Shown in pieces: positions 9,263 through 55,209 of a stretch of 64,000 nucleotides of DNA. Where the stretch lies: positions 124,001 through 188,000 of the forward strand of contig NZ_CP019641.1 in assembly GCF_001999905.1 (NCBI RefSeq), written 5' to 3'. The notes beneath the pieces were generated by a model. That model was not told the DNA's origin. It searched no databases and saw nothing but the letters and a program-made list of their open reading frames with translations. The number at the start of each line of letters is the position of its first letter. Within the stretch, counting starts at the first letter, position 1. Source of the stretch: Planococcus lenghuensis (lineage in GTDB: Bacteria > Bacillota > Bacilli > Bacillales_A > Planococcaceae). A program made the position numbers and the translations under genes.

Positions 9263-10243
9263 ATGGAAGAAAGAACAATTATGGAGACACTGAAAGCACC
9301 ATTTCAGCCTAGCGAGATCGAGTGGCGCGTGCAGTCCGCTACAAGGAATCAAAACGGAGTCAGGCTTCTGGTGGTCCCGTACATTACTGCAAGAGGGATT
9401 ATGGACCGTCTGGATGCCATACTTGGCGCCCAATGGACTTCAACCTTCCAGCAGATGAAAATCGCCGGAAAAGAAGGGTTCGGTTGTAGCCTGTCCATCA
9501 AGATTGGGGACGAATGGATTACCCGGACAGATGGCGCGGAAGTATCGGATATCGAAAGCATCAAAGGCGGACACAGCAATGCGCTCAAGCGTGCAGCTGT
9601 TCAGTGGGGAGTCGGCCGTTATCTTTACGACCTCCCGAAATTCTGGGTTCCGCTGAAAGACAGAGGAAATAACTACGTCAACGGTAAATTTAAGATCAGC
9701 GGAAAAGACGAGTACCTAAAAGGGGGCTTTGATGACCCGCAACTGCCGAAAGAGTTTTTGCCGGCGGATTTCAAGTACAGCAATTCACAGGGAAATTCAC
9801 AGCAACAACAGTCACAGCAACCGCCGCAGCGACCGTCACAGGGTAAACCTTCCGGTCAGCAGCCTTCTGCGTCGAATCAGCCGCCTGCTTCGCAAGGCAC
9901 TGATCCGAAACTGGCCGTGACCCAACTGCTGACAGACCTGCAAGTGAAACGGGAACACGTGGAGCATCTGTTCCACCGAGCAATCGGTCAAAAAATGACA
10001 GTCGGCCAGGCAACCACAGAACAGCTCCGCGAGTTATACAAAGCCCTCTATCCAGTACGGACCTACCTCAACTTCTGCCATCAGGCGGGATTGAGCATGG
10101 AAAAAGCTTTGTATTTCGCCCAAATCACCGTGAGAGAGCCGCTCAATGAGCCGCATAACCTTTTCTTCAAAATGAACAAGAGCATAGCGGACAGAACAAT
10201 CGAGATGATCAAAGAGGATATGGCGCAGCAACAGCCAGCCTAA
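9263..10243 (+). CDS. Rad52/Rad22-family single-strand annealing protein
   Basis: 326 residues, ATG 9263 behind GGAAGGGGTATGCAAC. The N-terminal about 150 residues match the Rad52/Rad22 core: RLLVVPYITARGIMDRLDAILG, GFGCSLSIKI, then SNALKRAAVQWGVGRYLYDLP, the conserved KRA..WG.GRYLYD block. A Gln/Pro/Ser-rich linker (about 172-215) leads to a C-terminal helical domain. Such proteins anneal complementary single strands and can help circularise or repair incoming plasmid DNA. It is the first gene behind family B leader copy 2 and is followed by a terminator, then dnaN. The family call is firm for the N-domain; the plasmid role is inferred. Confidence 0.85.
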   Translation: MEERTIMETLKAPFQPSEIEWRVQSATRNQNGVRLLVVPYITARGIMDRLDAILGAQWTSTFQQMKIAGKEGFGCSLSIKIGDEWITRTDGAEVSDIESIKGGHSNALKRAAVQWGVGRYLYDLPKFWVPLKDRGNNYVNGKFKISGKDEYLKGGFDDPQLPKEFLPADFKYSNSQGNSQQQQSQQPPQRPSQGKPSGQQPSASNQPPASQGTDPKLAVTQLLTDLQVKREHVEHLFHRAIGQKMTVGQATTEQLRELYKALYPVRTYLNFCHQAGLSMEKALYFAQITVREPLNEPHNLFFKMNKSIADRTIEMIKEDMAQQQPA

Positions 10244-10358: not shown

Positions 10359-11453
10359 ATGAAATTCACCGTTAAAAAAGAAGTCCTTGTTGACGCATTC
10401 GCCAAAATCGGAAAAGTTCTTAGCAACAAAACCACAATTCCGGTATTGCGTGGTGTGAAAGTCGAAGCGAGAGCGGATTGTATTCTACTGACGGCGAGTG
10501 ATGCTTCCGAAAGCATCATCCACCGCATTCCTGCAGATCCGGGCAAGGCGGTTATCGAATTGGAAGGTGAAGCTGTTTTCAAACGTGAAGCCCTTGAAGT
10601 GGCGTCCAAGCTCAGTGGTGATATTACATACGAACTGGAAGAGGACACCCTTCATGTGACACAGGCGAAGACGAAGTTGGACTTCTCCACGATGCCGGCA
10701 ACGGACTTTCCGAAAATCCCGACGACGAACAGCAAGCCGATTTCACTTACCGGCCAGCAGTTTTCTGACCTGATTGCCCGTACAGTTTATGCGGTATCAA
10801 AAAGCGAAGTGCGCCCAGTGCTGACAGGTGTGAACCTGAGCTTCGGCAAAGAGCTCCAGGCGGTATCGACGGATAGCCACCGGCTGTCGAAAGTCACCAT
10901 TCCGCTTGAAACCGAGATGGAGGAAATCTGCATCACGGTTCCTGGAAAAATGCTCGAGCACGCGCTAAAAGCGTTCGACTTGTCGCAAAACGTCTTCTTG
11001 ACCGCGGAACAGAACCAGATCGCCATGGTTAACGGCAACACCATCTACTTATCACGACTCATTGATGGCCAGTACCCGGCAACCGACCGACTGATTCCGA
11101 CCGATTTCAAACACGAGATGACGGCGAGCACAGAAGAACTGAAAGACACATTGACCCTGCTTGCTACCCTGTCCAAAGAAGGCGTAGTGAAAATGGAAGT
11201 GGACGGCATGTTTGTTAAATTCCAATCCCGAAGTGAAACATCCAAGGGGGAGCGGGAAATTGCCTACCACGAATACACAGGAGAGGAAGGGTTTGCGATT
11301 TCCTATTCAACGGTTTTCCTGCTGGATGCGCTGAAGCGTGTCGAAAGCGATTCCGTGAAACTGAAATTCGTTGACCCGATGCGGCCATTCATTGTGGAAG
11401 GCTTAGACGGAACGGATCAGACGCAATTGATCCTGCCTGTCCGCACATACTAA
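10359..11453 (+). CDS. dnaN: DNA polymerase III beta subunit (plasmid sliding clamp)
   Basis: 364 residues from ATG 10359, behind GAAGGGAGAA; an upstream in-frame TTG at 10338 lies inside the family C hairpin and is unlikely. The sequence follows DnaN throughout: FTVKKEVLVDAFAKIGKVL at the N-terminus, NKTTIPVLRGVKVEA, ARTVYAVSKSEVRPVLTGV in the middle domain, and a C-terminus ending in IEG-type residues then TQLILPVRTY. It forms the ring clamp that tethers polymerase and other partners to DNA. A plasmid copy is unusual. Its position next to Rad52-like and PRTRC genes suggests the clamp recruits plasmid proteins such as the QLDLF-containing product of 17648. Confidence 0.93.
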   Translation: MKFTVKKEVLVDAFAKIGKVLSNKTTIPVLRGVKVEARADCILLTASDASESIIHRIPADPGKAVIELEGEAVFKREALEVASKLSGDITYELEEDTLHVTQAKTKLDFSTMPATDFPKIPTTNSKPISLTGQQFSDLIARTVYAVSKSEVRPVLTGVNLSFGKELQAVSTDSHRLSKVTIPLETEMEEICITVPGKMLEHALKAFDLSQNVFLTAEQNQIAMVNGNTIYLSRLIDGQYPATDRLIPTDFKHEMTASTEELKDTLTLLATLSKEGVVKMEVDGMFVKFQSRSETSKGEREIAYHEYTGEEGFAISYSTVFLLDALKRVESDSVKLKFVDPMRPFIVEGLDGTDQTQLILPVRTY

Positions 11454-11519: not shown

Positions 11520-11861
11520 ATGATTGATTTCAATCGACTTCAAGAGGAATTCAATACGAGGAGCATTCCGGAAAGCTCGGTTCTGCCGAGGGAGGATGAG
11601 GGAGCGATTTATGTGCTTTATAGCATCTTCCATCGTCTTGATTGCGAAAGCATAGACTTTTCCAGATTTACCGATGCGGATTGCGAGAATGCCAAGGAAA
11701 GTTTCAACGACTCTGTCTGCTTCGAAGATGAAGATGAATTTGTCCATTTTGACAGAGATTCTTCTTGGGCTGCTGTCTCCTTTATCGCGAATATCACATG
11801 GAATTACAACAAATCACTTCCAAACATGAAACGGGTTCAACCGCCGTTTCCGTTGATATGA
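11520..11861 (+). CDS. unknown acidic protein
   Basis: 113 residues; ATG 11520 has GAAAGGAG upstream. Strongly acidic, soluble, with no membrane segment. Cys and Asp/Glu residues are frequent (DCESIDFSRFTDADCENAKES). No family is recognised. It lies between dnaN and the PRTRC genes and ends 10 nt before the next start, so it probably belongs to the same transcript. Confidence 0.6.
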   Translation: MIDFNRLQEEFNTRSIPESSVLPREDEGAIYVLYSIFHRLDCESIDFSRFTDADCENAKESFNDSVCFEDEDEFVHFDRDSSWAAVSFIANITWNYNKSLPNMKRVQPPFPLI

Positions 11862-11871
11862 GGTGATTTTC

Positions 11872-12393
11872 ATGGATATGCACATTGAGCAGTTTTATCA
11901 AGCCTTGGAAGTCTTTGAAAGCCTGCACTTGGCAAAAATTGCAGCTGATTACGGAATGCCGAGAGAAAAACTAAACCAGATCGACCTCTACCCTGCTTAT
12001 GAAGGTAGCTCAAATCTATTTGAGAACTTCCTTCATATTCTGAATTGGGCGTTCGACCTGGAAGACTGTAATGCCTCTAAAGCGATGGACATAAATGAAG
12101 AGATGCTCATGGGCAAGCTCAAACTCTATCCATCGCATGATGAAGGGAAAAACACGCTTGAACGATTTTACGATTGTACGATGCTCCTCTTAAAAAATTC
12201 GTACATGAGAGATATGCCAGAACATCTCGCAGATGAAATCAAAGAGGACGGCGAGAATTTCATTCTTGGGAGAACAGATGAAGGGCTTGTGGTGATCGTC
12301 GGAGATATTTATGATCCCCGAATGTTTCACGGACCCTTAAAAACACTGCTCGCTTACCAAAAGGAAGCGTTGCAAAGGAGAGAAATCGCATGA
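11872..12393 (+). CDS. unknown soluble protein upstream of PRTRC-B
   Basis: 173 residues from ATG 11872, with TGAGGTG 6 nt before; a GTG nine bases earlier is a poorer start. Predicted mostly helical and acidic in its first half (IEQFYQALEVFESLHLAKI), then ILGRTDEGLVVIVGDIYDP near the C-terminus. The stop codon overlaps the ATG of the PRTRC-B-like gene (ATGA at 12390), indicating translational coupling to it. No family recognised; a cassette accessory role is inferred from this coupling. Confidence 0.6.
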   Translation: MDMHIEQFYQALEVFESLHLAKIAADYGMPREKLNQIDLYPAYEGSSNLFENFLHILNWAFDLEDCNASKAMDINEEMLMGKLKLYPSHDEGKNTLERFYDCTMLLLKNSYMRDMPEHLADEIKEDGENFILGRTDEGLVVIVGDIYDPRMFHGPLKTLLAYQKEALQRREIA

Positions 12394-13112
12394 AATTGGT
12401 GTTTGAAATGGAGGACGTGCCGACAAATCCGAACTATCCGGTCAGGGGATTTCAATATTCCGATGCTGGAGTCCGGAGCGGCCCGAACCTGTTATCTATC
12501 CAACAGCTGATAGAAATGCTTGAACAGCGAGATCCACAAGCGGATGAACGGAGAGAAACTCGTAGAAAGTCACTTTCTTATACGCCAGTTCTTCCCACCG
12601 GCACGCTCATGTATGCAAGTGACGATGAAGGAACATTGGAACAACTTGTTTTCGAAATCCAAAGTTCCACATTCGATGTTCTTTACAAAGACGAGAAGAT
12701 ACCAATTGCCCTTCCGTTTCCACGTATGGTCGTTATCGTGGAATTGGATACAATCGGCGATCAAAAAAAAATCGACACCATGCGGGTTTTCGCAGTTGAG
12801 AATGATGGAAAGCCGATTACAGCTGATACGCCGCTGTATATGTTTCCCTATCCCAACGTGATGAAAAGTTCCGGTTCGGTTTGTTGGGGACAGAATTCCA
12901 GACTGATGGTTCAGTCGATACAGGAAGTCCGTTCCGCTTTCCTCCTGTTCTTCTCATCACCGTTCAATGAAGACCATGGTGTTCACACGACACACGGAAT
13001 ACAAAGCTTTCGTCAGCTGATGGGCAAGATTCAAGACCAGCCTTTCAATGATGAATGGCTGATCTCTTCAAAGCAGACGCTGGAAGAGAGCCTGAGAGAC
13101 CTTTCGTACTAA
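12390..13112 (+). CDS. PRTRC system protein B (E2/UBC-like, Prok-E2_D)
   Basis: 240 residues, coupled to the previous gene. The central region follows the PRTRC-B/Prok-E2_D pattern: FPRMVVIVEL, MRVFAVENDGKPITADTPLYMFPYPNV, then SGSVCWGQN. The PYPNV...G-x-VC arrangement parallels the HPN...C active-site region of ubiquitin-conjugating enzymes, with the Cys of VCWG in the catalytic place. PRTRC (ParB-related, ThiF-related cassette) systems are known from plasmids, mainly of Proteobacteria; their biochemical role is not established. An E1-like ThiF and a JAB peptidase follow in the same cluster. The family call is by motif recall, not a search. Confidence 0.78.
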   Translation: MKLVFEMEDVPTNPNYPVRGFQYSDAGVRSGPNLLSIQQLIEMLEQRDPQADERRETRRKSLSYTPVLPTGTLMYASDDEGTLEQLVFEIQSSTFDVLYKDEKIPIALPFPRMVVIVELDTIGDQKKIDTMRVFAVENDGKPITADTPLYMFPYPNVMKSSGSVCWGQNSRLMVQSIQEVRSAFLLFFSSPFNEDHGVHTTHGIQSFRQLMGKIQDQPFNDEWLISSKQTLEESLRDLSY

Positions 13113-13128
13113 TAATCAACTCGAATAA

Positions 13129-13148
13129 GCCTATACCTTACGGATAGC
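13129..13148 (+). promoter_or_regulatory. family C hairpin before the PRTRC-A gene
   Basis: Same bulged-A stem-loop as before dnaN, with the lower stem changed to TAT/ATA, upper CC/GG kept and loop TTAC. It ends 20 nt before ATG 13169; ribosome site GAAGGGAGAA lies between. Confidence 0.75.
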
Positions 13149-13168
13149 ATCGAGAAGGGAGAATATTT

Positions 13169-16100
13169 ATGTCAAAGCAAACAGATATCTTCAGCAGTGC
13201 GACACGTTCCTGACTGAAAGGATCAGGCACTAACGAAACCGTTAGTAGAACTGTTATTCCAAGAAGTCAAATGACTGGGTAACGCCAGAAAGGGCTTCCC
13301 CTAATACTCCGACATGCATGGAGATTGGCAAAAATCCGATTGTATGAAGCTCGGTGAAGTCGGCCAAAGACTACCGTAACAAGTAACGGTGACGAAATCT
13401 CTCTGGAGGTGGAGAGTGTAGTTGATAGGTCGGGGGTCTATAAAAAACCTATGATTAGAATGTTCGTAATGCCTTCATGTTCGGCTTGAACTGACGAATC
13501 TCTGAATGTAAGGCTCTATAAGATAACTGGATAGAAATGTTCAGGCACTCAAACCAAGTGGCAACTGTGGGTAAGTAAAAATTGTTGATATGAAAACCCA
13601 TACAGCGTTATAGGCGCAGTCAAGGTTGCAGGGTCAAAGGAGAAATCTAAGGGTTTATGGACAGATAGGAATAACGGAACGTGGTAAATCTGCTACGTGG
13701 AGGGTTTGCCCCCAATGAAACGGTTTAGGGAAAGCAATGGTGATAATAGCCATATGTATAACCCAATTAAAGCAGATGAAGGTGGTGGCACAGTACCAAC
13801 GAAGCGTCTAATAAGCGCTGAGGGATAGCCACTAGTCTAAACGCAGGTTAATCTGAAAACGAAAAAGTTTTTGTTTCCAACTAAGTTGTAAGGTTCGAGT
13901 AAGACTAAAAGAGGTTTATCTCCTTAATACAAGGAGGAACCAACTTATGACTAAGGAAAAGAAAGCCAAACTAAGACACGTTGAATACTTTTCACTCCAG
14001 CCTACACTAGATGAATTGTACTCACGCAGTCAAAACGGCAATAACTTTTACAACCTTATAGAGCTAATGAAAAGCGAGGAAAACATAAGACTGGCGTACA
14101 GGAATATCAAGAAAAACAAAGGGAGTATGACAGCTGGGACAGATGGACAGACAATCACAGACATCAAAAATCTCAGCGTGGAAGAAGTAGTAAGCCAAGT
14201 ACAATCCATGTTCGAATGGTATAAACCTCAATCAGTAAGAAGAGTTTTTATTCCTAAACCGAATGGAGATAAAAGGCCATTAGGAATCCCGACTATATGG
14301 GATAGAATCTTCCAACAATGCATACTACAAATCCTTGAACCCATCTGTGAGGCCAAATTTCATAAACATAATTATGGATTCAGGCCAAACCGTAGCACCC
14401 ATGATGCCATCGCACGTATGAATACCCTTATAAACAAAGGAAACAAGTATTACTGCGTGGATATTGATATCAAAGGTTTCTTTGACAACGTAAATCATGA
14501 GAAACTACTAAAACAGATTTGGACTCTTGGAATAAAAGACAAAGCATTAATTTCAATAATATCTCGTTTACTAAAGGCAGAAATAGAAGGAGAAGGCAAA
14601 CCCACTAAAGGGACACCTCAAGGGGGAATTCTTAGTCCCCTGCTCTCTAATATTGTGCTTAATGAATTTGATTGGTGGATCAGTAACCAATGGGAAACTT
14701 TCAAAACAAAGTTCTCATACCAAACTGATAAAAATAAGTTTGCCCCACTCAAAAAGACGAGGTTAAAAGAATGCTTTATCGTCAGGTATGCGGACGATTT
14801 CAAAATCTTATGTAGAGACTACCACACTGCTAAAAAGGTCTTCCATGCTACGAAAGATTTCCTTCAAGTTAGATTAAGGTTAGAAATTAATCCTCAAAAA
14901 TCTAAAGTGATAAATTTGAAGAAGCAAGGAAGCGATTTTCTTGGAATCAAAATTAAGGCAGTAGCAAAGAAGAAAAAGTACGTCGCTCAATCTAAAATGA
15001 CTGAGAAGGCGAAGAAAAATGCTAAAGCCAAAATCAAAACAGAAATCAAGAAAATCCAGAAAGACCCTACAGCAGAAAGTGTATGGAATTTTAATTCCGT
15101 AGTAATGGGAATCCACAAGTACTACTCTGTCGCCTCCCAAATCACAACCGATTTAGTAGAGATAAACCAGTCACTCAGAACCGTGCTTTACAACCGTTTA
15201 AGAGAGAATTGGACAGAAGCCTCAACAGCAGATATGACGAGAACTCTAAAAAAACGATATGGAAAATACAATCCTAAGCTATGGAAAATACAAAGGATGG
15301 TACTCGTACCTATCTACGCACAGAAAAATATACCAGCAATGAATTTCTCTCAGAACACCTCTAACTACACCATTAAAGGACGAGAAAAAATTCATTCAGG
15401 GTTAAAATGCGTAAACCAAAGAGCTCTACACCTGCTAATGAAGTCCTTCATAAAAGAGGCAAGTATTGAGTATAACGACAATAGAATCTCTAAGTATGTT
15501 GCTCAATACGGTAAATGCGCCATCTCGGGATTAGAATTAGAAATTGCTGAAATTCATTGTCATCATGTTACCCCCAAAGAATTTGGCGGAACTGATGAAT
15601 ATAGCAATTTAGTGATCGTTCACAAGGACATTCACAAACTAATCCATATGAAAGACAGGGAAAAAATAAAAGGACTTCTGAAAACACTCTCTCTAAACGA
15701 TAAGCAAATCTTAAAGTTCAATAATTTAAGATTAAAAGCACACAGAGAAGCGATATAAGGCGGAAGATTAACTGAAATTAGATGGAACGCCGTATGCGGT
15801 GAAAATCGCACGTACGGTGTGAAGCGGGGGAAAAGCCGGAGATAGCATCAAAAGCTTACCTATCGCTACTGTTCAATCTTGTAGATGAGGCTGCAGAAAA
15901 GAGAAAAGCGGAAGAAGTCGCTAAGAAAGCAGAGCAGGAAGCGAAACAGGCGAAACTGCGGGAAGAAATGGAGAAAAAGGCAGCGGCCGCTAAAAATGCG
16001 CCTGCAAGCAAGCCGGCAGATAAGAAAGCCGATGCCTTTACCCCTGACCAGGAAACAGTGATTCGGTATCTCGGTGAGCAATTCCCGATTACGGATTTCT

Positions 16101-16783
16101 TTTCTCCGGAGGAAGTCGTCGAAGGCATATTGGTTCAGAAGAAAGATGAAGATCCGGTCCGTGAACCGCTCACCGCGGAAATTGTACGGAAGCGGTTGGA
16201 GAAAGAGTTCCCCGAACTCGTCAAATCCCACACCGACCTTGTTTTCATCAAGAATAAGAACCTGATTGTCCCGATTCTGAAAGCAAAAGCGAAAGGTTGT
16301 AAAGAGGAAGCGCTGCCGTATGGCAATGCTTCCTTTTTCCCTATCCCTTTCCCGGTCATGGAGCAGTTCATTACACTTGCTGCGCAATTGAAGGACCTTG
16401 AAATCCATGCGGATGTCTACTTTCATCCCGAAAAAGGGCATTTCCTTGATATTCCTGGTCAAGAGCTTTCCAGATATCAAGTGAGAGTCAAAGAAGAAGC
16501 TTGGTCCATTGCAGAGCGGGTGGAAGATGCTATCAAATTGATGGAGATTCACTCCCATCATGGTATGGCTCCCCTTCCTTCTTCATTGGATAATGAATCG
16601 GAACGGATGCCAGGAATGGTCTATGCAATCGTCGGGCGAATAACCCGCTGGCTGCCTTCCATTACTGTCCGGACATTCCATAAGACAGAACACCGCCATG
16701 TATCACTAGATCCTTCAGATATATTTGAAAGTCCTTTTCAACAACTGCCTGATTTTGATACGTCGAAAGTCGAGGTGTTTTAA
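13169..16783 (+). CDS. PRTRC system protein A, JAB/MPN metalloprotease domain (split by group II intron)
   Basis: Two exons, 13169-13196 and 15870-16783; joining them gives an uninterrupted 313-residue frame with an ATG codon formed across the junction. Unspliced, translation stops 14 codons after ATG. Residues about 10-50 form a charged Glu/Lys/Ala coiled coil. Residues about 155-290 follow PRTRC-A: ALPYGNASFF, then the JAMM metal motif H237-x-H239, seven residues, Ser247, two residues, Asp250, as in deubiquitinase-type JAB peptidases. Residues 66-152 are less clear. The domain predicts an isopeptidase or processing protease acting with the neighbouring E1- and E2-like proteins. The stop at 16783 nearly abuts the ThiF gene. 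Confidence 0.8.
13197..15869 (+). mobile_element. group II intron 1, inserted in the PRTRC-A gene
   Basis: 2673 bp. The 5' end is GTGCGACACGTT. The ribozyme domains I-IV occupy 13197-13946, which has no gene, then comes the intron protein. Domain V lies at about 15785-15820: CGCCGTATGCGG, GAAA, CGCACGTACGG. The 3' end reads AAGCTTACCTATCGCTAC. Boundaries were set by restoring the host frame and by matching intron 2, whose junction is confirmed by the SSB protein. Same strand as its host, so it is able to splice. Confidence 0.9.
13947..15758 (+). CDS. ltrA: group II intron reverse transcriptase/maturase with HNH endonuclease
   Basis: 603 residues; ATG 13947 follows AAGGAGG. Reverse transcriptase blocks: PKPNGDKRPLGIPTIWDRI, YGFRPNRSTHDAI, DIDIKGFFDNV, TPQGGILSPLLSN, and the catalytic RYADD near residue 280. 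Maturase domain X follows. The C-terminus holds an HNH/zinc-type endonuclease (KCAISG...HCHHVTPKEFGG...H). All blocks are intact, so it should support splicing and mobility of intron 1. Gene symbol is used in the generic LtrA-like sense. Confidence 0.93.
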   Translation: MTKEKKAKLRHVEYFSLQPTLDELYSRSQNGNNFYNLIELMKSEENIRLAYRNIKKNKGSMTAGTDGQTITDIKNLSVEEVVSQVQSMFEWYKPQSVRRVFIPKPNGDKRPLGIPTIWDRIFQQCILQILEPICEAKFHKHNYGFRPNRSTHDAIARMNTLINKGNKYYCVDIDIKGFFDNVNHEKLLKQIWTLGIKDKALISIISRLLKAEIEGEGKPTKGTPQGGILSPLLSNIVLNEFDWWISNQWETFKTKFSYQTDKNKFAPLKKTRLKECFIVRYADDFKILCRDYHTAKKVFHATKDFLQVRLRLEINPQKSKVINLKKQGSDFLGIKIKAVAKKKKYVAQSKMTEKAKKNAKAKIKTEIKKIQKDPTAESVWNFNSVVMGIHKYYSVASQITTDLVEINQSLRTVLYNRLRENWTEASTADMTRTLKKRYGKYNPKLWKIQRMVLVPIYAQKNIPAMNFSQNTSNYTIKGREKIHSGLKCVNQRALHLLMKSFIKEASIEYNDNRISKYVAQYGKCAISGLELEIAEIHCHHVTPKEFGGTDEYSNLVIVHKDIHKLIHMKDREKIKGLLKTLSLNDKQILKFNNLRLKAHREAI

Positions 16784-16784
16784 G

Positions 16785-17651
16785 CTGATCGACTTGAAGA
16801 AGAAGGATAAGACGAGTTGGAACGACTATGAGGAAATCTTTCCTTTCATCGTTCAAATTGGAACAGGCGGGACAGGCGGTTACTTGGTTCAGCATATCGC
16901 CCAACTGTTAGGTACGACCGGACAGCCGGCTACCTATGTCGTGGCAGACCCGGATGTTATCGAGGAAAAGAATTTGGGGAACCAACTATTTCTGAAATCC
17001 GAAGTCGGCATGAAGAAAGCGGAAGTTCTTGCGCAGCGCTATTCCTATGCGTACAACTTGGACATCCGCAGCTTCACAGACCGGTACATTGAATCGGTAG
17101 AGGATATTCGTTCCCTGTTCAATCAAGACTATATGGACGTGGGCCAGGGCGGATTCAGCAATAAGCTACTCCTCCCCATCTTGATCGGCTGCGTGGATAA
17201 TAACTTCTCACGGCAAATCATGCATGAATTCTTTCAGCAGTATCCAGGCATCTACATCGATGCAGGGAACGAAGCGACAGAAGTGCCTGCCGACTGGCAG
17301 ACACGAGCTAAGTCTGAATGGACAGAAGCGGAATTGCAGACATTCAAGGAAAGCGGATGGAGCGGTCAGGTAGTCACAGGCGTTAACCTGAACCTGGCCA
17401 AACTTCCGGCGGTTGGCGAAGTGTATCCGGATATCCTCGAAGATAACGGCAGCATACGTCCCAGCTCCCTCTCCTGTACGCAATTGACCGCCAGTGAACC
17501 TCAACGCCTTATCGTGAATAAATTCGCGGCTACGGCGATTCTGAGCGTCCTGACAGAGATTGTGGAAGACCATACCGTAAGCCGGCATGTCACCTTCTTC
17601 CATGCGAAGAAAGGCTACATGCGTTCGACAGAGGCAGGTGTAGAGGCATGA
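16785..17651 (+). CDS. PRTRC-type ThiF/E1-like adenylating protein
   Basis: About 288 residues. The start is uncertain: CTG 16785 (9 nt after GAGGTG) or TTG 16794. An in-frame TTG at 16725 would overlap PRTRC-A. The Rossmann nucleotide motif FIVQIGTGGTGGYLV is near the N-terminus, VVADPDVIEEKNLGNQLF gives the acidic and Arg/Asn-type ATP site elements, and SSLSCTQL carries a candidate catalytic Cys at the position where PRTRC ThiF proteins have SC, followed by a conserved VNKFAATAIL helix. E1/ThiF/MoeB proteins adenylate the C-terminus of ubiquitin-like proteins. It overlaps the next gene by 4 bp. Confidence 0.85.
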   Translation: MIDLKKKDKTSWNDYEEIFPFIVQIGTGGTGGYLVQHIAQLLGTTGQPATYVVADPDVIEEKNLGNQLFLKSEVGMKKAEVLAQRYSYAYNLDIRSFTDRYIESVEDIRSLFNQDYMDVGQGGFSNKLLLPILIGCVDNNFSRQIMHEFFQQYPGIYIDAGNEATEVPADWQTRAKSEWTEAELQTFKESGWSGQVVTGVNLNLAKLPAVGEVYPDILEDNGSIRPSSLSCTQLTASEPQRLIVNKFAATAILSVLTEIVEDHTVSRHVTFFHAKKGYMRSTEAGVEA

Positions 17652-18028
17652 CGCAGCTCGACTTGTTTGATGCGCCCCCTACCCCGCTCAAACAGCTGGA
17701 ACAGAAATTCCGGCAGTTCATCGAACAGAACGGGTTGCCGTATGATCTGGTCGCCATCAACAAATCCCATGACGAATCGGCATTGATTTTTGACCGAGAG
17801 CGTGAAAGTCTGCATTACATCAACGTCTATGGCGGGAAAATCAAGTATACCTACCATGCCCCGAATTGCGGCGAGTTCGGCACGAATTTTCATCTCCTGG
17901 ATAACCGCTTCGAGAAATACGAATCGGTCAGGCTGATAAACGATAAAGGCGAGTTTATCTCCAGAGGGAAAATGTATGTAGCTGCTGAACTGGCGCGGGG
18001 CTGGCGGATTATGGACACTTTCCGTTAA
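17648..18028 (+). CDS. unknown protein with N-terminal QLDLF clamp-binding motif
   Basis: 126 residues, start overlapping the ThiF stop (ATGA). The N-terminus reads MTQLDLFDAP. QLDLF is a near-perfect match to the bacterial sliding-clamp-binding pentapeptide (QL[SD]LF). The rest is a mixed alpha/beta domain with INVYGGKIKYTYHAPNCGEFGTNF and no recognised family. Because the same gene cluster encodes a sliding clamp, recruitment of this protein, and perhaps the PRTRC enzymes, to the plasmid clamp is a reasonable inference. Confidence 0.65.
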   Translation: MTQLDLFDAPPTPLKQLEQKFRQFIEQNGLPYDLVAINKSHDESALIFDRERESLHYINVYGGKIKYTYHAPNCGEFGTNFHLLDNRFEKYESVRLINDKGEFISRGKMYVAAELARGWRIMDTFR

Positions 18029-18064
18029 TCGAAAGACAGCTGGACTAAAAAAGGAGAGATTAAC

Positions 18065-18433
18065 ATGGCAATTTTTGAAGCAAACCGGATGATCGCATTG
18101 GCAAAGAAGGATAAACTGATTGCGATGATGATCAAGGATTTGGGCAAGGACGAGAGGGCGTTGAAAGCCATTTTTAACAGTGAAGTGTTTGGTGACAGTG
18201 CGATGGAGCACAGTTACCGCACTTGCATGAAGCCCATCCAGGAAGAAGCGCCCGTGAAGGAATACGAGTTCCAGACGAAGATTCAGCACGGGAATAAAGT
18301 AGAAGAAACCGTACTTTACGGTTTCGGAGCAACTGAAGAACAAGCCAGAGAGGACGCTCATCACGAGTTTTGCCATCTTCAGCAAATACCACGGAGCATG
18401 GTGACCATCGGAAAAGTCCTTTCAATCAAATGA
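18065..18433 (+). CDS. unknown protein, last gene of the dnaN-PRTRC cluster
   Basis: 122 residues; ATG 18065 behind AAAAAAGGAGAG. The N-terminal half is helical and basic (MIALAKKDKLIAMMIKDLG). The C-terminal half has ATEEQAREDAHHEFCHLQQIP, with His and Cys residues that could bind metal. No family recognised, and it does not look like a ubiquitin-like protein (no Gly-Gly or KG end; it ends in VLSIK). It is followed directly by a terminator. Confidence 0.6.
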   Translation: MAIFEANRMIALAKKDKLIAMMIKDLGKDERALKAIFNSEVFGDSAMEHSYRTCMKPIQEEAPVKEYEFQTKIQHGNKVEETVLYGFGATEEQAREDAHHEFCHLQQIPRSMVTIGKVLSIK

Positions 18434-25938: not shown

Positions 25939-27246
25939 TTAGTTACCAAACATTCTTGCGAAATCATCGTCTTTAGCAGGTTTTTTATCATCTGCTGTTT
26001 TCGTTTTCTTATCTCCGAATAAATCATCAAAGCTTACGTCATCATCCTGCTGCTCATTGGAAGGAGAGAGTGACTCCATGTCAGCAAATGGATCCACTTC
26101 GTTCGACTGTTTTTCTTCTACCATCCGTGCAAGTCGTTTGCCTTCTTGAACGAGCTCACCAACACGTTTTGGTAACTTTAATCCCGCAAAAACAGCATAA
26201 AAGTATACCTCTGAAATATCTTTGTTTTGATACACATAGTGTGCGACCGGTTTTTCATTTGCAAAAGGAGCTAACTCATTCACTTCGGATTCTATTGCAT
26301 TAACGAATTCGAAATTGAATAGCCGGTTTGCTGTCGGTTTATTTGCAAGAATACTTACGGCCAGGCGAGTAGCGTCTGATAGATCATAACCTTCAGACAG
26401 AACTCCTTCGTTAATTTGGTCCTTCAAACGACCTGCATGAGAGATGCTTTGTGCGGAATCGAGCTCACTTGCTTTAGAAGTAAAGCGAGCGAAGTGGAGG
26501 ACGCCAGGCGTTTTAATTAAATTCTCAAATTCCGAAACGTCAAAGTGATTTTCGCCGACCGGATTGAAGCTGGAAGTCACGATATTCAACTCGTGTAAGG
26601 TTTCCGCAATAAAATTGTTTGAGTAACTCAGGTATTCAGAAACAGTAGCAGTTGGTTGATTCTTACTGAAATGAGAATAGAGTTTCTGATTATCAACAAG
26701 AATAATTGAACCTAATGCGGTCATAGCGCCGTTGATCTTCTGTAAGCGCTGCAGTGCATTGTTTAGCACTGTCTGTCCTTCGCTGGAACGTGGCAGTGTC
26801 ATAATCAAACCAAATCGTTTCTTGAAGCCGTTTTCCATCATCGTTCGTATAGCTTCGATCACGGAGCCGGTTCCAGTTCCGCCGCCAAGACCCACAACTA
26901 TCCATACAAAATCAGTGTTAGAGAATTGCTTTTGGACAGCTTCTCCGATTATTTCGGCATCTTCTTGATACATTTGTTCTCCTAATTTGATATTTCTGCC
27001 GGCTCCTTTACCTGAGCCAATAATCATTTTCTGTGTGTTTGGATTAATGGTGTCGATCTTATCAAGATCAATTCGGTTTGTATTAACAAGAAGAGCTGAG
27101 TAAGGAAATCGGTTATTTTGGACATTCGTTGAAATGTCAGCACATGCAGCTGCGATAGAGCTGCCGCCCATGCCAAGTCCTAGGAATCCAAATCGAAGGC
27201 TTAGTGAAATGTCTGTGTTTTTTAGAATTGAACGCTGGTTCTCCAT
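25939..27246 (-). CDS. tubZ: TubZ-like tubulin/FtsZ-family partition GTPase
   Basis: 435 residues from ATG 27246 (a GTG at 27258 is an alternative). The N-terminus RFGFLGLGMGGSSIAAACADI is the nucleotide-binding start of the tubulin/FtsZ fold. The signature GLGGGTGTGSV is near residue 113, and NTQKMIIGSGKGAGRN fits the loop between. The C-terminus is a charged tail (DDDVSFDDLFGDKKTK...DDDFARMFGN). TubZ filaments move plasmids in type III partition systems of Bacillus plasmids such as pXO1 and pBtoxis. TubR and tubC iterons are immediately upstream, which makes the assignment firm. Confidence 0.9.
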   Translation of the reverse strand: MENQRSILKNTDISLSLRFGFLGLGMGGSSIAAACADISTNVQNNRFPYSALLVNTNRIDLDKIDTINPNTQKMIIGSGKGAGRNIKLGEQMYQEDAEIIGEAVQKQFSNTDFVWIVVGLGGGTGTGSVIEAIRTMMENGFKKRFGLIMTLPRSSEGQTVLNNALQRLQKINGAMTALGSIILVDNQKLYSHFSKNQPTATVSEYLSYSNNFIAETLHELNIVTSSFNPVGENHFDVSEFENLIKTPGVLHFARFTSKASELDSAQSISHAGRLKDQINEGVLSEGYDLSDATRLAVSILANKPTANRLFNFEFVNAIESEVNELAPFANEKPVAHYVYQNKDISEVYFYAVFAGLKLPKRVGELVQEGKRLARMVEEKQSNEVDPFADMESLSPSNEQQDDDVSFDDLFGDKKTKTADDKKPAKDDDFARMFGN

Positions 27247-27273
27247 GTATGTAAACACTCGCTTTCTATTGAG

Positions 27274-51794: not shown

Positions 51795-54700
51795 ATGATT
51801 AACAGATCAATTCTTGTCGGTAGACTTACGAAAGACCCGGAACTCCGCTATACGCGTGCGTCACGTTCTGCCTAACCACGAATTTGTGGGAACAGCAGCG
51901 GATTTCTCCTACTAAGTATTATAGAAGAAATCAAGAACTCTAACATTGAATTTTCTCGTGAAAACCGAGAATCGCACAGAATCTTGCGTAAATTTAATTA
52001 ACCTACCTCCTTATGGACGTTTAAGAAAATTTACGTGTGCGCAGTCTAATACCCCTACATGCGGCGACAATCTGACAATTGAAACCGTGTGAAGCTAGGT
52101 GAGGTCGTAGCCCAAGTAACCTAAGTCGTAAAAGATATGGCGAAAGTGGTGCGGGACTCCTTAAAAACTTTGTCTATGGCTACCAACTTTAGTGGGAACT
52201 CATGCAGTCTCGTTACGTAGATTTAATTCGGAAACGAGTTTGAAAGTAATCAGCGGTTTGTTGTTGTGTGTTCAACTTACTGCCCCATTCCTTGAAACAG
52301 GGTGGGAAATACAGCACTTAACTAAAGATTCAGAGCTGTATTAAGGATTACCGGGATAGGGTGAGAGTCTAAGGATAAGTAAATAAAGGGATAGATGTTA
52401 GGGAACGTGAGAGAGCCTGTCAGAAGAAGGGTGTCAGCCTTATGATAACTGATAGGAAGTCAGGTCCCTCATAGTAGTGTTGAAGCAGATGTAATGTCTG
52501 TGGAGCGAAGGGGGGAAGTCGGTTCTAAGAGATAGACTTTTTCACTTAAAAGAAAAATAAAGACTATACAAAACGTCATTTGGTTAACGTTATGGGTATT
52601 GTACAGTACTCATAATAATCGCTAATCCACCTATAACCTAGCCTCGTATTTCTCAGGAAGGTTGTGTGTACAAAGGTGGAGGTTAATTGCCAAATCAAGT
52701 CCGAAAAGGACTTGAAGCTGACTCTGGACTCCATGTATCAAGAGTCCAAAGAGGGAAAATCCCTAAATGGATTGTATGAAGTCATTATTAATGACCAAAC
52801 TATCATAACTGCAATACACGACATAAAGTCGAATAAGGGCAGTATGACAGCGGGCATTGATAATAAGACCATCAACCATTTTCTACAAATGCCCAGAGAG
52901 AAACTCATTCGGACGGTACGGAGAGCGATGGAGAACTATAATCCTCAACCCGCCAGAAGAAAACATATTCCGAAAGGAAATACGGGTAAAACTAGACCCC
53001 TCGGTATTCCAACTATGTTGGATAGAATCATCCAACAGTGCATTAAAATTGTTATAGAACCCATAATAGAGGCAAAACTCTACGAGCATAGTTACGGATT
53101 TAGACCTTACAGGTCTACACACCATGCTATCGCAAGAGTTGCTCATCTAATTAACATTGGGAGATATGAATACGTCATTGAAGGAGATATAAAAGGCTAC
53201 TTCGATAATATTGACCATGCTGTGCTAATGCGTAAATTGCACAAAATTGGGATTATTGATAAACGCGTTCTCGCGTTAATCAAGAAAATGCTGAAATCGG
53301 GGATTATCGAGGAAGATTTCAAATTCCACGATACCGACAAAGGTACACCGCAAGGTGGTATTATCAGCCCTATTCTCGCAAATGTGTATTTGAACGATTT
53401 TGATTGGACTGTCTCCAGCAGGTATGAAAATCCATACTTTGCGGATGAATTCTCGAACGTCAAAAATGCTCGTAGGAAATTTCGGAAGGTAGGTAGGCAA
53501 CCTGTATTTCTAGTTAGATACGCAGATGACTGGGTGATCTTCACGAAAACGAAAGAACAAGCCGAAAAGCAATTGGAGTATCTGAAAAGATACTTCAAGG
53601 CGAAATTGAATCTTGAACTTTCGGAAGAAAAGACTGTCATCACTGACCTTAAAGAAAATAGAATGAAATTTCTCGGCTTCCAAGTTGAATTGGCCAAACC
53701 TCGAAAGAGCATAGGCAGAACTGGAAATGCTAAGAAACATGAGTTATATGCCAGAATTCTACCTGATATGAAAAAGGTTAGAACAAAAACGGCAGAGATT
53801 CTAAAGGACATTAAGCAGATTAGGAGAACACAATGCGACTATCAGAAAGCTGTGATAATCGAGAAAGTGAACTCTAAAATCGTTGGTTTATCTGAATATT
53901 ACAAGACAGCGGTCTGGACAGAAATTTTTGACTCCTTAGACCATAAAGTCTTCGTTACCAGTCACTACACGTGGAAGAAACTCTATCGCAACCAGAACAA
54001 TGGTAAAAATAAAGCTAAACTGAAAAGATATTCCGAACTTTCTAACCGACGCAAGAGACACGAAGGCTATACCGCCGAAACTCATGCAGTGGAAGTAGAA
54101 GGAGAATGGGTTGGAATTACAAAATTCCTACACACGAAATCGGAAGACCCACAGTGCTTTAATCAGAATTTAACCCCTTATACGGTTGAAGGACGAGAAC
54201 TTTACTACAAGAATGCGAAAAAGAATCAGAGTCTTAACAGACTCCCACTCTATGACAAGAACGAAGACGTATTCCGAATAGCCAAACGAAACATGCTGAA
54301 ATCCGATAAAAAGAATCTTAGAAAGTATAACTTTGAATTCTATATGAACAGGGAATATGCGTTCAACAGAGATAGAGGAAAATGTAAAGTATGTGCCGGC
54401 GATATTTTACCAGTGGAGCTACAATGCCACCATATCAGCCCTACCTTACCACTCGACGAAGTAAACAAAATTACTAATCTCGCTAGCCTCCACAAGAAAT
54501 GTCATGAACTAGTACATGGCACTTCCGTGCCGGAGGACACAAAAATAGCGAAGAAAGTCGAGAAATACAGAGCGAAACTCATAGGTGACATTAGCTAAGA
54601 CGTATAGTATGGCACTATCTCGTCTAAGGATTGATAATCCTTGGATTGAATCCCATAAAACAGGATTAATTAGAATCGATGGCGTGCCGTGTGCGGTGAA

Positions 54701-55209
54701 AATCGCACGCACGGTACTCAGGAGGGGAAAAGCTGGAGATTACTTCAAAAGTTTACCTATTCCTATCGAACGGCGTGGCAGCCTGTACATTCACACTTGC
54801 TGTTAACCGTACATTTACGAATGCCAGCGGTGAAAAAGAAGCGGATTTCATCAATTGTGTAACGTGGCGGAAACAGGCTGAAAACACGGCGAACTTTCTG
54901 AAAAAAGGAAGCCTTGCCGGTGTGGAAGGCCGCATTCAGACACGTTCTTACGAGAAGGATGGCCAACGCGTCTATGTGACAGAAGTTGTTGCGGACAGCG
55001 TTCAGTTCCTGGAACCGAAAAGTGCTCGAAGTGAGCAGCAAGGGAACCAAGGTGGCCAACAGAATCAAAACTCTGGTTACAATCAGGGCAATATAAACCG
55101 AAATCAGCAGAATGGGAATTCGACTCCTGCTTATTCCGGTGGCGGGTACAGCAGCGGCGGCGGACAGCAAGAACCGTTCACCGTCTCTGATGATGATTTG
55201 CCATTCTGA
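51795..55209 (+). CDS. ssb: single-stranded DNA-binding protein, split by group II intron 2
   Basis: Exons 51795-51855 and 54767-55209 join to a 167-residue SSB. Exon 1 gives [20 protein letters not shown] and the junction restores [17 protein letters not shown], the standard SSB sequence. The OB fold (1-105) is followed by a Gln/Asn/Gly-rich linker and the acidic tip DDDLPF that binds partner proteins. Plasmid SSB protects incoming single strands. Intron removal is required for function. Preceded by a family C hairpin. Confidence 0.95.
51856..54766 (+). mobile_element. group II intron 2, inserted in ssb
   Basis: 2911 bp. 5' end GTGCGTCACGTT; domain V near 54684-54717 (GTGCCGTGTGCGG, GAAA, CGCACGCACGG); 3' end AAGTTTACCTATTCCTAT. 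Both boundaries are fixed by the SSB protein sequence. The untranslated ribozyme part is 51856-52663. Confidence 0.94.
52664..54598 (+). CDS. ltrA: group II intron reverse transcriptase/maturase with HNH endonuclease
   Basis: 644 residues from GTG 52664, behind CAGGAAGG. RT blocks: [56 protein letters not shown], and RYADD near residue 290. Domain X follows, and the C-terminal HNH region has KCKVCAG...LQCHHISP...CHELVHG. Intact. Related to but clearly diverged from the intron 1 protein. Confidence 0.93.
   Translation: MCTKVEVNCQIKSEKDLKLTLDSMYQESKEGKSLNGLYEVIINDQTIITAIHDIKSNKGSMTAGIDNKTINHFLQMPREKLIRTVRRAMENYNPQPARRKHIPKGNTGKTRPLGIPTMLDRIIQQCIKIVIEPIIEAKLYEHSYGFRPYRSTHHAIARVAHLINIGRYEYVIEGDIKGYFDNIDHAVLMRKLHKIGIIDKRVLALIKKMLKSGIIEEDFKFHDTDKGTPQGGIISPILANVYLNDFDWTVSSRYENPYFADEFSNVKNARRKFRKVGRQPVFLVRYADDWVIFTKTKEQAEKQLEYLKRYFKAKLNLELSEEKTVITDLKENRMKFLGFQVELAKPRKSIGRTGNAKKHELYARILPDMKKVRTKTAEILKDIKQIRRTQCDYQKAVIIEKVNSKIVGLSEYYKTAVWTEIFDSLDHKVFVTSHYTWKKLYRNQNNGKNKAKLKRYSELSNRRKRHEGYTAETHAVEVEGEWVGITKFLHTKSEDPQCFNQNLTPYTVEGRELYYKNAKKNQSLNRLPLYDKNEDVFRIAKRNMLKSDKKNLRKYNFEFYMNREYAFNRDRGKCKVCAGDILPVELQCHHISPTLPLDEVNKITNLASLHKKCHELVHGTSVPEDTKIAKKVEKYRAKLIGDIS

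What the first reader, a model, noticed from the sequence alone, without database searches (positions are those of the whole stretch)
11872..18433. PRTRC-type E1/E2/JAB cassette on a Gram-positive conjugative plasmid, next to its own sliding clamp
Seen: an E2-like protein (PYPNV...VCWG), a JAB protein with an intact HxH-x7-S-xx-D motif and a ThiF with GTGGTGG lie in one cluster after dnaN. Established: PRTRC cassettes carry these three families and are known mainly from proteobacterial plasmids; their function is unsolved. Inference: this is a clamp-associated ubiquitin-like modification system acting on plasmid replication or repair proteins. No ParB and no obvious stand-alone Ub-like protein is present, so the modifier, if any, is unknown.
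Basis: partly seen in the sequence, partly recalled or inferred. Interest (0 to 1): 0.88.

Follow-up and report, generated by a model that had tools for sequence, protein, structure and literature searches.

The report
Plasmid ubiquitin-like tag with clamp address
A large plasmid of a Gram-positive bacterium carries a ubiquitin-like tagging kit in which the tag appears to be made as part of its own cutting enzyme and carries a short address for the DNA sliding clamp, which makes the long-unknown job of such plasmid kits directly testable.

Summary
The E2, JAB and ThiF (E1) genes are really there, directly downstream of a plasmid rad52-dnaN pair, an arrangement that recurs in Bacillales. (1) A group II intron (13197-15869) interrupts the JAB gene after nine codons; splicing would restore one frame. 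Four relatives have an intron at the same site. (2) The "missing" modifier sits inside the JAB protein: a ubiquitin-like domain ending in a conserved ..K-G, homologous to stand-alone relatives that end exactly there. In 11 of 13 searched records with such a ready-made Ubl no Prok-JAB gene was found; with a fused or tailed Ubl, 7 of 7 had one. (3) The arm before the Ubl carries Q-x-x-[LIM]-F, close to the beta-clamp-binding motif, in 30 of 44 nonredundant arms (shuffles average 0.6). Best reading: a PRTRC-like pathway whose JAB matures the modifier, whose E1/E2 conjugate it, and whose tag brings clamp affinity. Nothing is shown biochemically. NCBI's PRTRC cut-offs are not met, the Ubl fold match is weak, most fused Ubls miss Pfam's Prok_Ub, and the JAB/tail relation is not significant once descent is considered.

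The parts
9263..10243 (+). Rad52-family recombination protein, first gene of the conserved neighbourhood
   Evidence: Pfam Rad52_Rad22 70.5 bits; family present in 10 of 19 plasmid and 17 of 34 genome loci
10359..11453 (+). plasmid-borne DnaN (beta sliding clamp), second copy besides the one on contig C1
   Evidence: TIGR00663 246 bits; other copy at C1:1523-2653; keeps the TDSHRL, YPxTxRLIP and LILPVR stretches that the C1 copy also has
11520..11861 (+). conserved small cassette protein (113 aa); most relatives end in a hydrophobic C-terminus (..DDFI, here ..FPLI); function unknown
   Evidence: family in 17 of 19 plasmid loci; alignment
11863..12393 (+). conserved cassette protein (176 aa), in the position of PRTRC-F; function unknown
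   Evidence: family in 16 of 19 plasmid loci
12390..13112 (+). E2-like protein, Prok-E2_D, catalytic Cys165 (codon 12882-12884)
   Evidence: Pfam 50.2 bits; Cys invariant in 23 of 23
13169..13196 (+). exon 1 of the Ubl-JAB gene: codes MSKQTDIFS plus one base; QTDIF (13178-13192) is the putative clamp-binding motif
   Evidence: in-frame join, boundaries; motif statistics
13197..15869 (+). group II intron (GTGCG..AC) with maturase/RT-HNH ORF 13947-15758
   Evidence: Rfam RF02004 167.7 bits and RF00029 58.7 bits; TIGR04416 358 bits; same site in L014, L035, L036, L040
15870..16783 (+). exon 2 of the Ubl-JAB gene (linker, Ubl, JAB)
   Evidence: spliced product 313 aa
16037..16297 (+). ubiquitin-like domain ending ..KAKG; predicted maturation point after Gly (codon 16295-16297)
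   Evidence: HHalign of the fused set to stand-alone Ubls P 98.9; AF2 pLDDT 89.8; VIA-align rows nearly all Ub-like, Z 4.5 or less; Gly invariant in 19 of 19
16316..16762 (+). JAB/JAMM metalloprotease domain
   Evidence: JAMM residues invariant in 19 of 19; Z 14.5 to PfJAMM1
16785..17651 (+). ThiF/E1-like adenylating enzyme, invariant Cys231 (start codon uncertain)
   Evidence: Pfam ThiF 34.4, PRTRC_ThiF 85.8 bits; invariant residues in 17 of 17; nearest solved relative by profile: ubiquitin E1
17648..18433 (+). two ORFs (17648-18028 begins MTQLDLF, a consensus clamp motif; 18065-18433) inside the finding's interval but not conserved; membership doubtful
   Evidence: no relative in the loci searched

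Best explanation
It is a Bacillota branch of the plasmid Ub-like cassettes (type 6d of Iyer et al. 2006; NCBI's PRTRC is the branch described from Proteobacteria). Proposed working: the transcript is spliced (inferred from sequence); the Ubl-JAB polyprotein is cut by JAB after ..KAKG (inferred), giving a mature modifier made of an N-terminal arm with a clamp-binding motif, a flexible linker and a Ubl with C-terminal Gly; ThiF adenylates it and E2 Cys165 passes it to lysines of partner proteins (inferred from families). Because the clamp motif sits on the arm of the modifier, upstream of the conjugated glycine, every conjugate would gain affinity for the sliding clamp: the tag would be an address that sends or holds replication or recombination proteins at the plasmid's (or host's) DnaN, or that marks the clamp itself; JAB can reverse it.
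For: Conserved order rad52-dnaN-s113-s176-E2-UblJAB-ThiF across genera. Ubl: HHalign P 98.9 to stand-alone Ubls, those P 85.6 to PRTRC-C, 20 control comparisons at 4.9 or less; Pfam Prok_Ub, below cut-off but on this domain, in L064, L024 (itself a Ubl-JAB fusion), L023, L062 and L065; VIA-align rows nearly all Ub-like with model about 4-86 on Ub 1-76. Maturation: 11 records whose Ubl ends exactly at ..KG have no Prok-JAB match; 7 of 7 with a fused or tailed Ubl have; the linker after KAKG is predicted disordered. Clamp motif: 30 of 44 arms against 0.58 expected, 29 of 44 against 0.21 for Q-x-[DSNAT]-[LIM]-F; consensus QL[S/D]LF/QxxLF from PMC12309361 (passages). dnaN elsewhere on the same plasmid in 6 of the 8 plasmid loci without adjacent dnaN. 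E1 profile closest to ubiquitin E1.
Against: No biochemistry. Foldseek gives the Ubl model no match with E up to 0.001; VIA-align Z is only 3.9-4.5, a level at which the tool warns of common arrangements. Fused Ubl against PRTRC-C directly scores only P 3.7, Paenibacillus-type subset 27.2. Prok_Ub is not among the 25 families listed for the 19 fused proteins nor listed for L008, L010, L018, L051, L058, L063, L025, L026, L027. 14 of 44 arms lack the first-position Gln, among them the near relative L028 (MTNIF); the window and most Bacillaceae have Ile, not Leu, at position 4. L021 and L022 have a ready-made Ubl and still a JAB; L053, L054, L059 have a Ubl ending ..EKNN plus a tail, without KG. 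L026 and L027 are called Ubls mainly by place, size and ..KG end (profile E 0.011 and 0.083). Only 2 supported independent pairs back the JAB/tail relation (median sign-test p 0.5). dnaN is not adjacent in 8 of 19 plasmid and 15 of 34 genome loci (L057 and L060 are fragments) and not found on two plasmids (W15, W19).
Confidence: 0.5

Rival explanations
1. A Ubl conjugation pathway as above, but the QxDIF peptide is not a clamp motif: it docks E1, E2 or the JAB domain, or keeps the precursor inactive. The dnaN linkage would then only reflect shared plasmid backbone.
For: The conserved stretch is longer than the pentapeptide in Bacillaceae (QTDIFSMF), position 4 is Ile there, and Gln is missing in 14 of 44 arms.
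Against: The motif lies at different places in low-complexity arms and reads QLSLF, QFSLF, QLALF, QSDLF in distant members; dnaN is on the plasmid of 12 of 14 Bacillota and cyanobacterial plasmid records searched.
Confidence: 0.22
2. An anti-phage or anti-plasmid defence system like Bil, Bub or type II CBASS.
For: PADLOC E1-E2 models hit ThiF weakly (31 bits); same activities as Bil; found on mobile replicons.
Against: Of the cassette proteins scanned, none but ThiF hits a related defence model (JAB: AbiEi 13.4 bits, negligible; the maturase hits RT models); nearby genes are of replication and recombination type.
Confidence: 0.13
3. A sulfur-carrier route: ThiF makes a thiocarboxylate on the Ubl for a modification of DNA, RNA or a cofactor.
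For: ThiF/ThiS kinship (weak ThiS hit in L064); PAPS-reductase-family genes close by in L008 and L011.
Against: An E2 with Cys invariant in 23 of 23; E1 profile nearer to ubiquitin E1 (E 2.8e-9) than to ThiF (3.7e-6); no such sulfur gene among the window proteins that I scanned, which was only a part of them.
Confidence: 0.1
4. In this host the cassette is dead because the intron breaks the gene.
For: The ORF is interrupted in DNA.
Against: Intron ends, D5/D6 and a full-length maturase are present, joining restores the conserved peptide exactly, and four relatives (two of them close kin, L014 and L040) carry an intron at the same base.
Confidence: 0.05

Closest known systems
PRTRC cassette (NCBIfam TIGR03735 A, TIGR03737 B, TIGR03738 C, TIGR03736 ThiF)
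   Same: E2 family D, JAB and ThiF in the same order B-A-ThiF; small Ubl; dnaN directly upstream in two betaproteobacterial loci
   Different: scores below the NCBI cut-offs; no ParB outside contig C1; Ubl fused to JAB; clamp-like motif on the Ubl arm; s113/s176 proteins
Type 6d operon of Iyer, Burroughs, Aravind 2006 (PMC1779556; section 14 and passages read)
   Same: Ub-like protein with conserved C-terminal Gly, JAB, E1, E2 and an alpha-helical protein; row 6d already lists Low-GC Gram positives
   Different: section 14 describes a stand-alone Ubl for this type; 'polymerase III' does not occur in the text and 'clamp' only as an author's name in the reference list
BilABCD / Bub pathways
   Same: E1, E2, JAMM protease, Ubl; BilC exposes the C-terminal Gly of BilA (PMC11354881, passages); the bacterial Ubl-deubiquitinase complex 8tyx is close to the JAB model (Z 13.4)
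   Different: separate genes, two-domain BilA; no clamp motif known to me (recalled)
Phage tail TapI/TapK (Ubl and JAB)
   Same: one prophage has TapI fused to the JAB (PMC1779556, passage)
   Different: tail assembly context; that row lists no E1 or E2
Ubiquitin/SUMO on PCNA (recalled)
   Same: Ub-like chemistry acting at a sliding clamp
   Different: in eukaryotes the clamp is the substrate and the modifier has no clamp-binding peptide (recalled)

Membership tests
PRTRC system | members A, B, ThiF over NCBI's curated cut-offs | tested here: not met
   18.3/101.8, 44.4/131.45, 85.8/144.75 bits
PRTRC system | PRTRC-C (stand-alone Prok_Ub) | tested here: not met
   no PF14454 match in the whole genome at E up to 10; a domain related through stand-alone Ubls is fused to JAB
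PRTRC system | ParB-family member in the cassette | tested here: not met
   the one ParB_N match of the genome is on contig C1, not on C2
Type 6d Ub-like operon (Iyer 2006) | E2 + JAB + E1 + Ubl with C-terminal Gly + alpha-helical protein | tested here: inconclusive
   E2, JAB, E1 met; Ubl present but its Gly is internal until processed; helical nature of s176 not modelled
Prok-E2_D (PF14460) | Pfam gathering score and catalytic Cys | tested here: met
   50.2 over 25 bits; Cys165 in 23 of 23
JAB/JAMM protease | E-x(n)-H-S/T-H-x7-S-x2-D motif and fold | tested here: met
   motif wording from the abstract start of PMC300881 (listing); Prok-JAB score itself 22.4, under 25
Ubiquitin-like beta-grasp modifier | beta-grasp fold over full length with C-terminal Gly | tested here: inconclusive
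   VIA-align rows nearly all Ub-like but Z 4.5 or less; Foldseek none at E up to 0.001; Gly invariant in 19 of 19
Beta-clamp-binding protein | QL[S/D]LF / QxxLF motif in a flexible segment | tested here: inconclusive
   window has QTDIF, Ile at position 4; Q-x-x-[LIM]-F in 30 of 44 arms, consensus-like QLSLF, QFSLF, QSDLF in several relatives
Beta-clamp-binding protein | measured binding to DnaN | not testable with these tools
   needs a peptide binding assay
Bil/Bub/CBASS defence | match to defence models | tested here: inconclusive
   only ThiF, weakly (31 bits, E1-E2 models); PADLOC shows no curated cut-off

The most novel reading that the evidence does not exclude
A post-translational 'clamp address': a ubiquitin-like modifier that itself carries a sliding-clamp-binding peptide, so that conjugation recruits any target protein to DnaN on the replicating plasmid, with the modifier made as a self-maturing fusion to its own JAMM protease.
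Probability: 0.33. Interest if true: 0.93.

Novelty: new variant of a known kind. Interest (0 to 1): 0.82.

Why it matters
PRTRC-type cassettes have been annotated on plasmids for years; none of the 26 papers listed for the word (several unrelated) is about their function by its title. This locus gives a modifier, a predicted cut site, two candidate catalytic cysteines and a concrete partner (DnaN), so the pathway can be reconstituted and its targets sought. If the tag is a clamp address, it would be a form of Ub-like signalling that I know of nowhere else, working at bacterial replication forks.

Tried and rejected
Stand-alone Prok_Ub in the window's genome: none. 17648-18433 as cassette members: no relatives found. 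Clamp motif on canonical PRTRC: PRTRC-E of L021/L022 ends ..TAELF and the E-like protein of cyanobacterium L026 ..QLSLF, but those of Cupriavidus (..LASLL), P. nitroreducens (..LAASF) and Deinococcus (..FFQPRP) do not fit, so no general claim. The E2 profile against solved structures gave nothing credible (best E 0.081); the Ubl-JAB profile only a Mov34/MPN protein at E 0.12. Foldseek on the Ubl model returned chance-level ribosomal proteins first (E 0.29). JAB against Ubl tails: Fisher p 4.6e-4 on unfused cases (7 tailed with JAB: L048, L051-L054, L059, L073, three of them without KG; 13 exact: 2 with, 11 without JAB), but not significant with descent taken into account. For the whole-genome records (L048, L051-L053) a Prok-JAB match need not be the cassette's own; the locus check shows one beside each. 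JAB families other than PF14464 were not searched there. Paper searches for a clamp link listed nothing on this subject; only open-licence PubMed Central text was searched and few papers were opened.

Rows dropped: the clamp-motif count left out seven ORFs whose N-terminus is missing (intron 3' exons, frameshift, internal stop), ORFs of L021, L022, L066, L070, L057 and JAB-only ORFs, and collapsed 54 arms to 44 at 70% identity; L026 (no arm) and L027 (MNFTELF) were not in that set; one of the 30 hits (L049 QPLLF) is unlike the rest and may lie before the true start. The tree left out seven near copies by hand and loci with ThiF under 200 aa, L058 among them, leaving 58 rows. Of 25 E2 plasmid hits, 19 were fetched. 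The dnaN co-occurrence count (25 of 37 Bacillota records; 24 of 27 under 400 kb) uses only the 60 rows shown of 323 and of 207.
Full report
What is there. The window is G000:C2:124001-188000. Downstream of a Rad52 gene (9263-10243) and a plasmid dnaN (10359-11453) lie two small conserved genes, an E2 of Pfam family Prok-E2_D (50.2 bits), a JAB gene and a ThiF gene. The host has a second dnaN on contig C1. E2 Cys165 is invariant in 23 of 23 aligned sequences, two proteobacterial PRTRC-B included. ThiF keeps glycines 26, 28, 31, Asp57, Lys78, Arg85, Asp138 and Cys231 in 17 of 17, and its profile is closest among solved structures to yeast ubiquitin E1 (E 2.8e-9); E. coli ThiF follows at 3.7e-6. 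On a quick tree of 58 ThiF proteins the window lies with Planococcus, Sporosarcina and Bacillaceae, in a group of 49 rows split from proteobacterial, Deinococcus and cyanobacterial rows (SH-aLRT 98).

The JAB gene carries an intron. Rfam finds group II intron parts at 13246-13444 and 15785-15869, with a maturase ORF at 13947-15758 (TIGR04416, 358 bits). Boundaries GTGCG..AC at 13197 and 15869 join ATG TCA AAG CAA ACA GAT ATC TTC AGC A|TG TTC.. in frame, giving MSKQTDIFSMFNLVDE.. and a 313-aa protein. I examined six loci with a large gap between E2 and JAB or a shortened JAB: five (window, L014, L035, L036, L040) have an intron at exactly this site, the sixth (L032) does not. Uninterrupted relatives read QTDIFSMF there (L017, L020).

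The modifier is inside the JAB protein. Before the JAMM domain lies a domain of about 72-89 residues that ends in ..K-G (..N-G in L005); Gly110 of the exon-2 ORF and the JAMM residues E145, H195, H197, S205, D208 are among only 13 invariant columns in 19 sequences. In other Bacillota replicons a related domain is a protein of its own: L023 and L062-L065 end exactly in ..KKG. HHalign gives fused against these stand-alone Ubls P 98.9 (E 1.7e-17), stand-alone against PRTRC-C P 85.6 (E 5.6e-6), fused against PRTRC-C directly only P 3.7 (27.2 for the Paenibacillus-type subset); 20 control comparisons with other cassette families stay at 4.9 or less. Pfam Prok_Ub matches, all below its cut-off of 25 bits, fall on this domain in L064 (E 1.8e-4), L024 (5.7e-4; a Ubl-JAB fusion that also hits Prok-JAB at 34.3 bits), L023 (0.0054), L062 and L065 (about 0.1); none is listed for the window, and Prok_Ub is not among the families listed for the 19 fused proteins. 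AlphaFold2 models the window's domain with pLDDT 89.8. Foldseek finds nothing at E up to 0.001; VIA-align of its candidates (484 aligned) lists ubiquitin, SUMO, ISG15 or other Ub-like chains in nearly all of the 50 rows shown (one, 6px3, cannot be told from its title), Z 3.9-4.5, rmsd mostly about 3 A, model about 4-86 on ubiquitin 1-76; the tool warns that such Z values are common. I take the domain as a Ubl with good, not complete, certainty. The JAB half is a clear JAMM fold (PfJAMM1:SAMP2 Z 14.5; bacterial Ubl-deubiquitinase 8tyx Z 13.4), and residues 110-121, just after KAKG, are predicted disordered.

Why JAB probably matures the Ubl. Three layouts exist: fusion (window and most Bacillales loci fetched), adjacent genes whose Ubl has a short tail (L048 ..KKG-SEKYE, L051 ..AKG-LM, L052 ..EKG-AS), and stand-alone Ubls that end at ..KG. 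A search of 20 whole records or genomes for Prok-JAB (E up to 0.01) found none in 11 with a ready-made Ubl (L023, L025, L026, L027, L058, L062-L065, L074, L075), at least one in 7 of 7 with a fused or tailed Ubl (L002, L017, L048, L051, L052, L053, L073), and one each in L021 and L022, which have a ready-made Ubl too (locus check). L053, L054 and L059 do not fit well: their Ubl ends ..EKNN with a tail. L026 and L027 are Ubls mainly by place, size and ..KG end. JAB families other than PF14464 were not searched, and viral records may be fragments. On the ThiF tree JAB and tail each change four times; only two supported independent pairs exist, so the relation is not significant after correction. 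Precedent: BilC exposes the glycine of BilA (PMC11354881, passage).

The clamp link. In front of the Ubl is a low-complexity arm. Q-x-x-[LIM]-F occurs in 30 of 44 nonredundant arms; 1000 shuffles average 0.58, maximum 3. Q-x-[DSNAT]-[LIM]-F occurs in 29 of 44 (0.21 expected), a looser form in 44 of 44 (3.6 expected). Shuffles do not remove shared descent. In other cassette proteins, over their whole length, the strict motif is rare: E2 5 of 65, ThiF 1 of 77, s113 2 of 51, s176 9 of 43, DnaN 2 of 35, Rad52 0 of 31. The bacterial clamp-binding consensus is QL[S/D]LF or QxxLF (PMC12309361, passages). Distant members show QLSLF (L052), QFSLF (L051, L062), QLALF (L023), QSSLF (L024), QSDLF (L055), at different places in the arm. 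Against it: 14 of 44 lack Gln, including the near relative L028 (MTNIF), and the window and most Bacillaceae have Ile at position 4. Both DnaN copies of the host keep TDSHRL, YPxTxRLIP and LILPVR, which I recall as parts of the binding groove.

dnaN linkage. dnaN lies within 6 kb upstream of E2 in 11 of 19 plasmid loci, 19 of 34 genome loci and 0 of 9 viral-collection loci. Of the 8 plasmid loci without it, six have a dnaN elsewhere on the plasmid (L006, L007, L008, L010, L013, L018; three of these under the family's curated cut-off, E 1e-36 or better) and in two none was found (L009, L011). Two betaproteobacterial PRTRC loci and an Alicyclobacillus locus also have dnaN upstream; on the plasmids of the ParB-type loci of Cupriavidus and P. 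nitroreducens and of the Deinococcus locus none was found. In the 60 rows shown of a dnaN search, 25 of 37 Bacillota records, and 24 of 27 under 400 kb, also appear among the 60 rows shown for ThiF.

How it most likely works. Shown by sequence: gene content, intron, Ubl-JAB fusion, conserved motif, conserved catalytic residues. Inferred: splicing, cut after ..KAKG, E1/E2 transfer, DnaN binding, targets. Since the clamp motif precedes the Ubl and the conjugated glycine follows it, mature modifier and conjugates keep the motif; the simplest consequence is that conjugation confers clamp affinity on the target, or that the clamp concentrates the modifier so that clamp-bound proteins or DnaN itself are modified. 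The neighbours (Rad52, DnaN; SSB, RecA and a uracil-DNA-glycosylase-family gene at L023; helicases at Paenibacillaceae loci) suggest replication or recombination proteins as targets.

Membership. It fails three PRTRC criteria (cut-offs, stand-alone PRTRC-C, ParB) and fits, with one change, the broader type 6d description of Iyer et al. 2006 (PMC1779556; section 14 and passages read), which already listed B. cereus and B. thuringiensis. I therefore file it as a new variant of that kind. New here, as far as the searches show (listings; passages of four papers opened), are the Ubl-JAB fusion in this context, the clamp motif and the JAB/tail relation.

Noticed in passing
window 13197-15869; L014 6555, L035 5424, L036 5357, L040 5347: Group II introns start at the same base, inside the codons of the conserved QTDIFS|MF peptide, in five loci (L014 and L040 are close kin); the intron may use the motif's conserved DNA as homing site.
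   Followed up: partly
L011 8426-10948, L015 8436-11197: The ThiF gene of the same cassette is interrupted in Paenibacillus lautus and Bacillaceae bacterium C02 by insertions whose 3' ends match Rfam group II introns.
   Followed up: partly
window 51933-54766 and 61895-62071: Further group II intron pieces, with a second long ORF at 52664-54598 between the first two.
   Followed up: no
window 17648-18028: Orphan 126-aa ORF right after ThiF begins MTQLDLF, a clamp-binding consensus; no relative found in the loci searched.
   Followed up: partly
window 11520-11861 and family: Most members of the 113-aa family end in an acidic-hydrophobic tail (..DDFI..VQFF..EDVFI), reminiscent of SSB C-terminal tips (recalled).
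   Followed up: no
L026 3680-4378; L051 1084-1368: Proteins near the cassette end in QLSLF, i.e. a C-terminal clamp motif.
   Followed up: no
L062-L070: Nine IMG/VR contigs, some about 200 kb, carry ThiF and E2 of this type; L062-L065 resemble the Bacillus halotolerans plasmid type (ready-made Ubl, no JAB found) and may be phage-plasmids.
   Followed up: partly
L002 9777-10017; L016 4575-5569: The Ubl-JAB gene has an in-frame stop in Planococcus MB-3u-03 and is split over two frames in C. pseudoceanisediminis: decay or sequencing error.
   Followed up: no
L008 11060-11893, L011 11745-12495: PAPS-reductase-family genes close to the cassette in two Paenibacillus plasmids.
   Followed up: no
window 25939-27258, 59961-60851: TubZ tubulin-like protein and an ArdC-like antirestriction protein on the same plasmid.
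   Followed up: no
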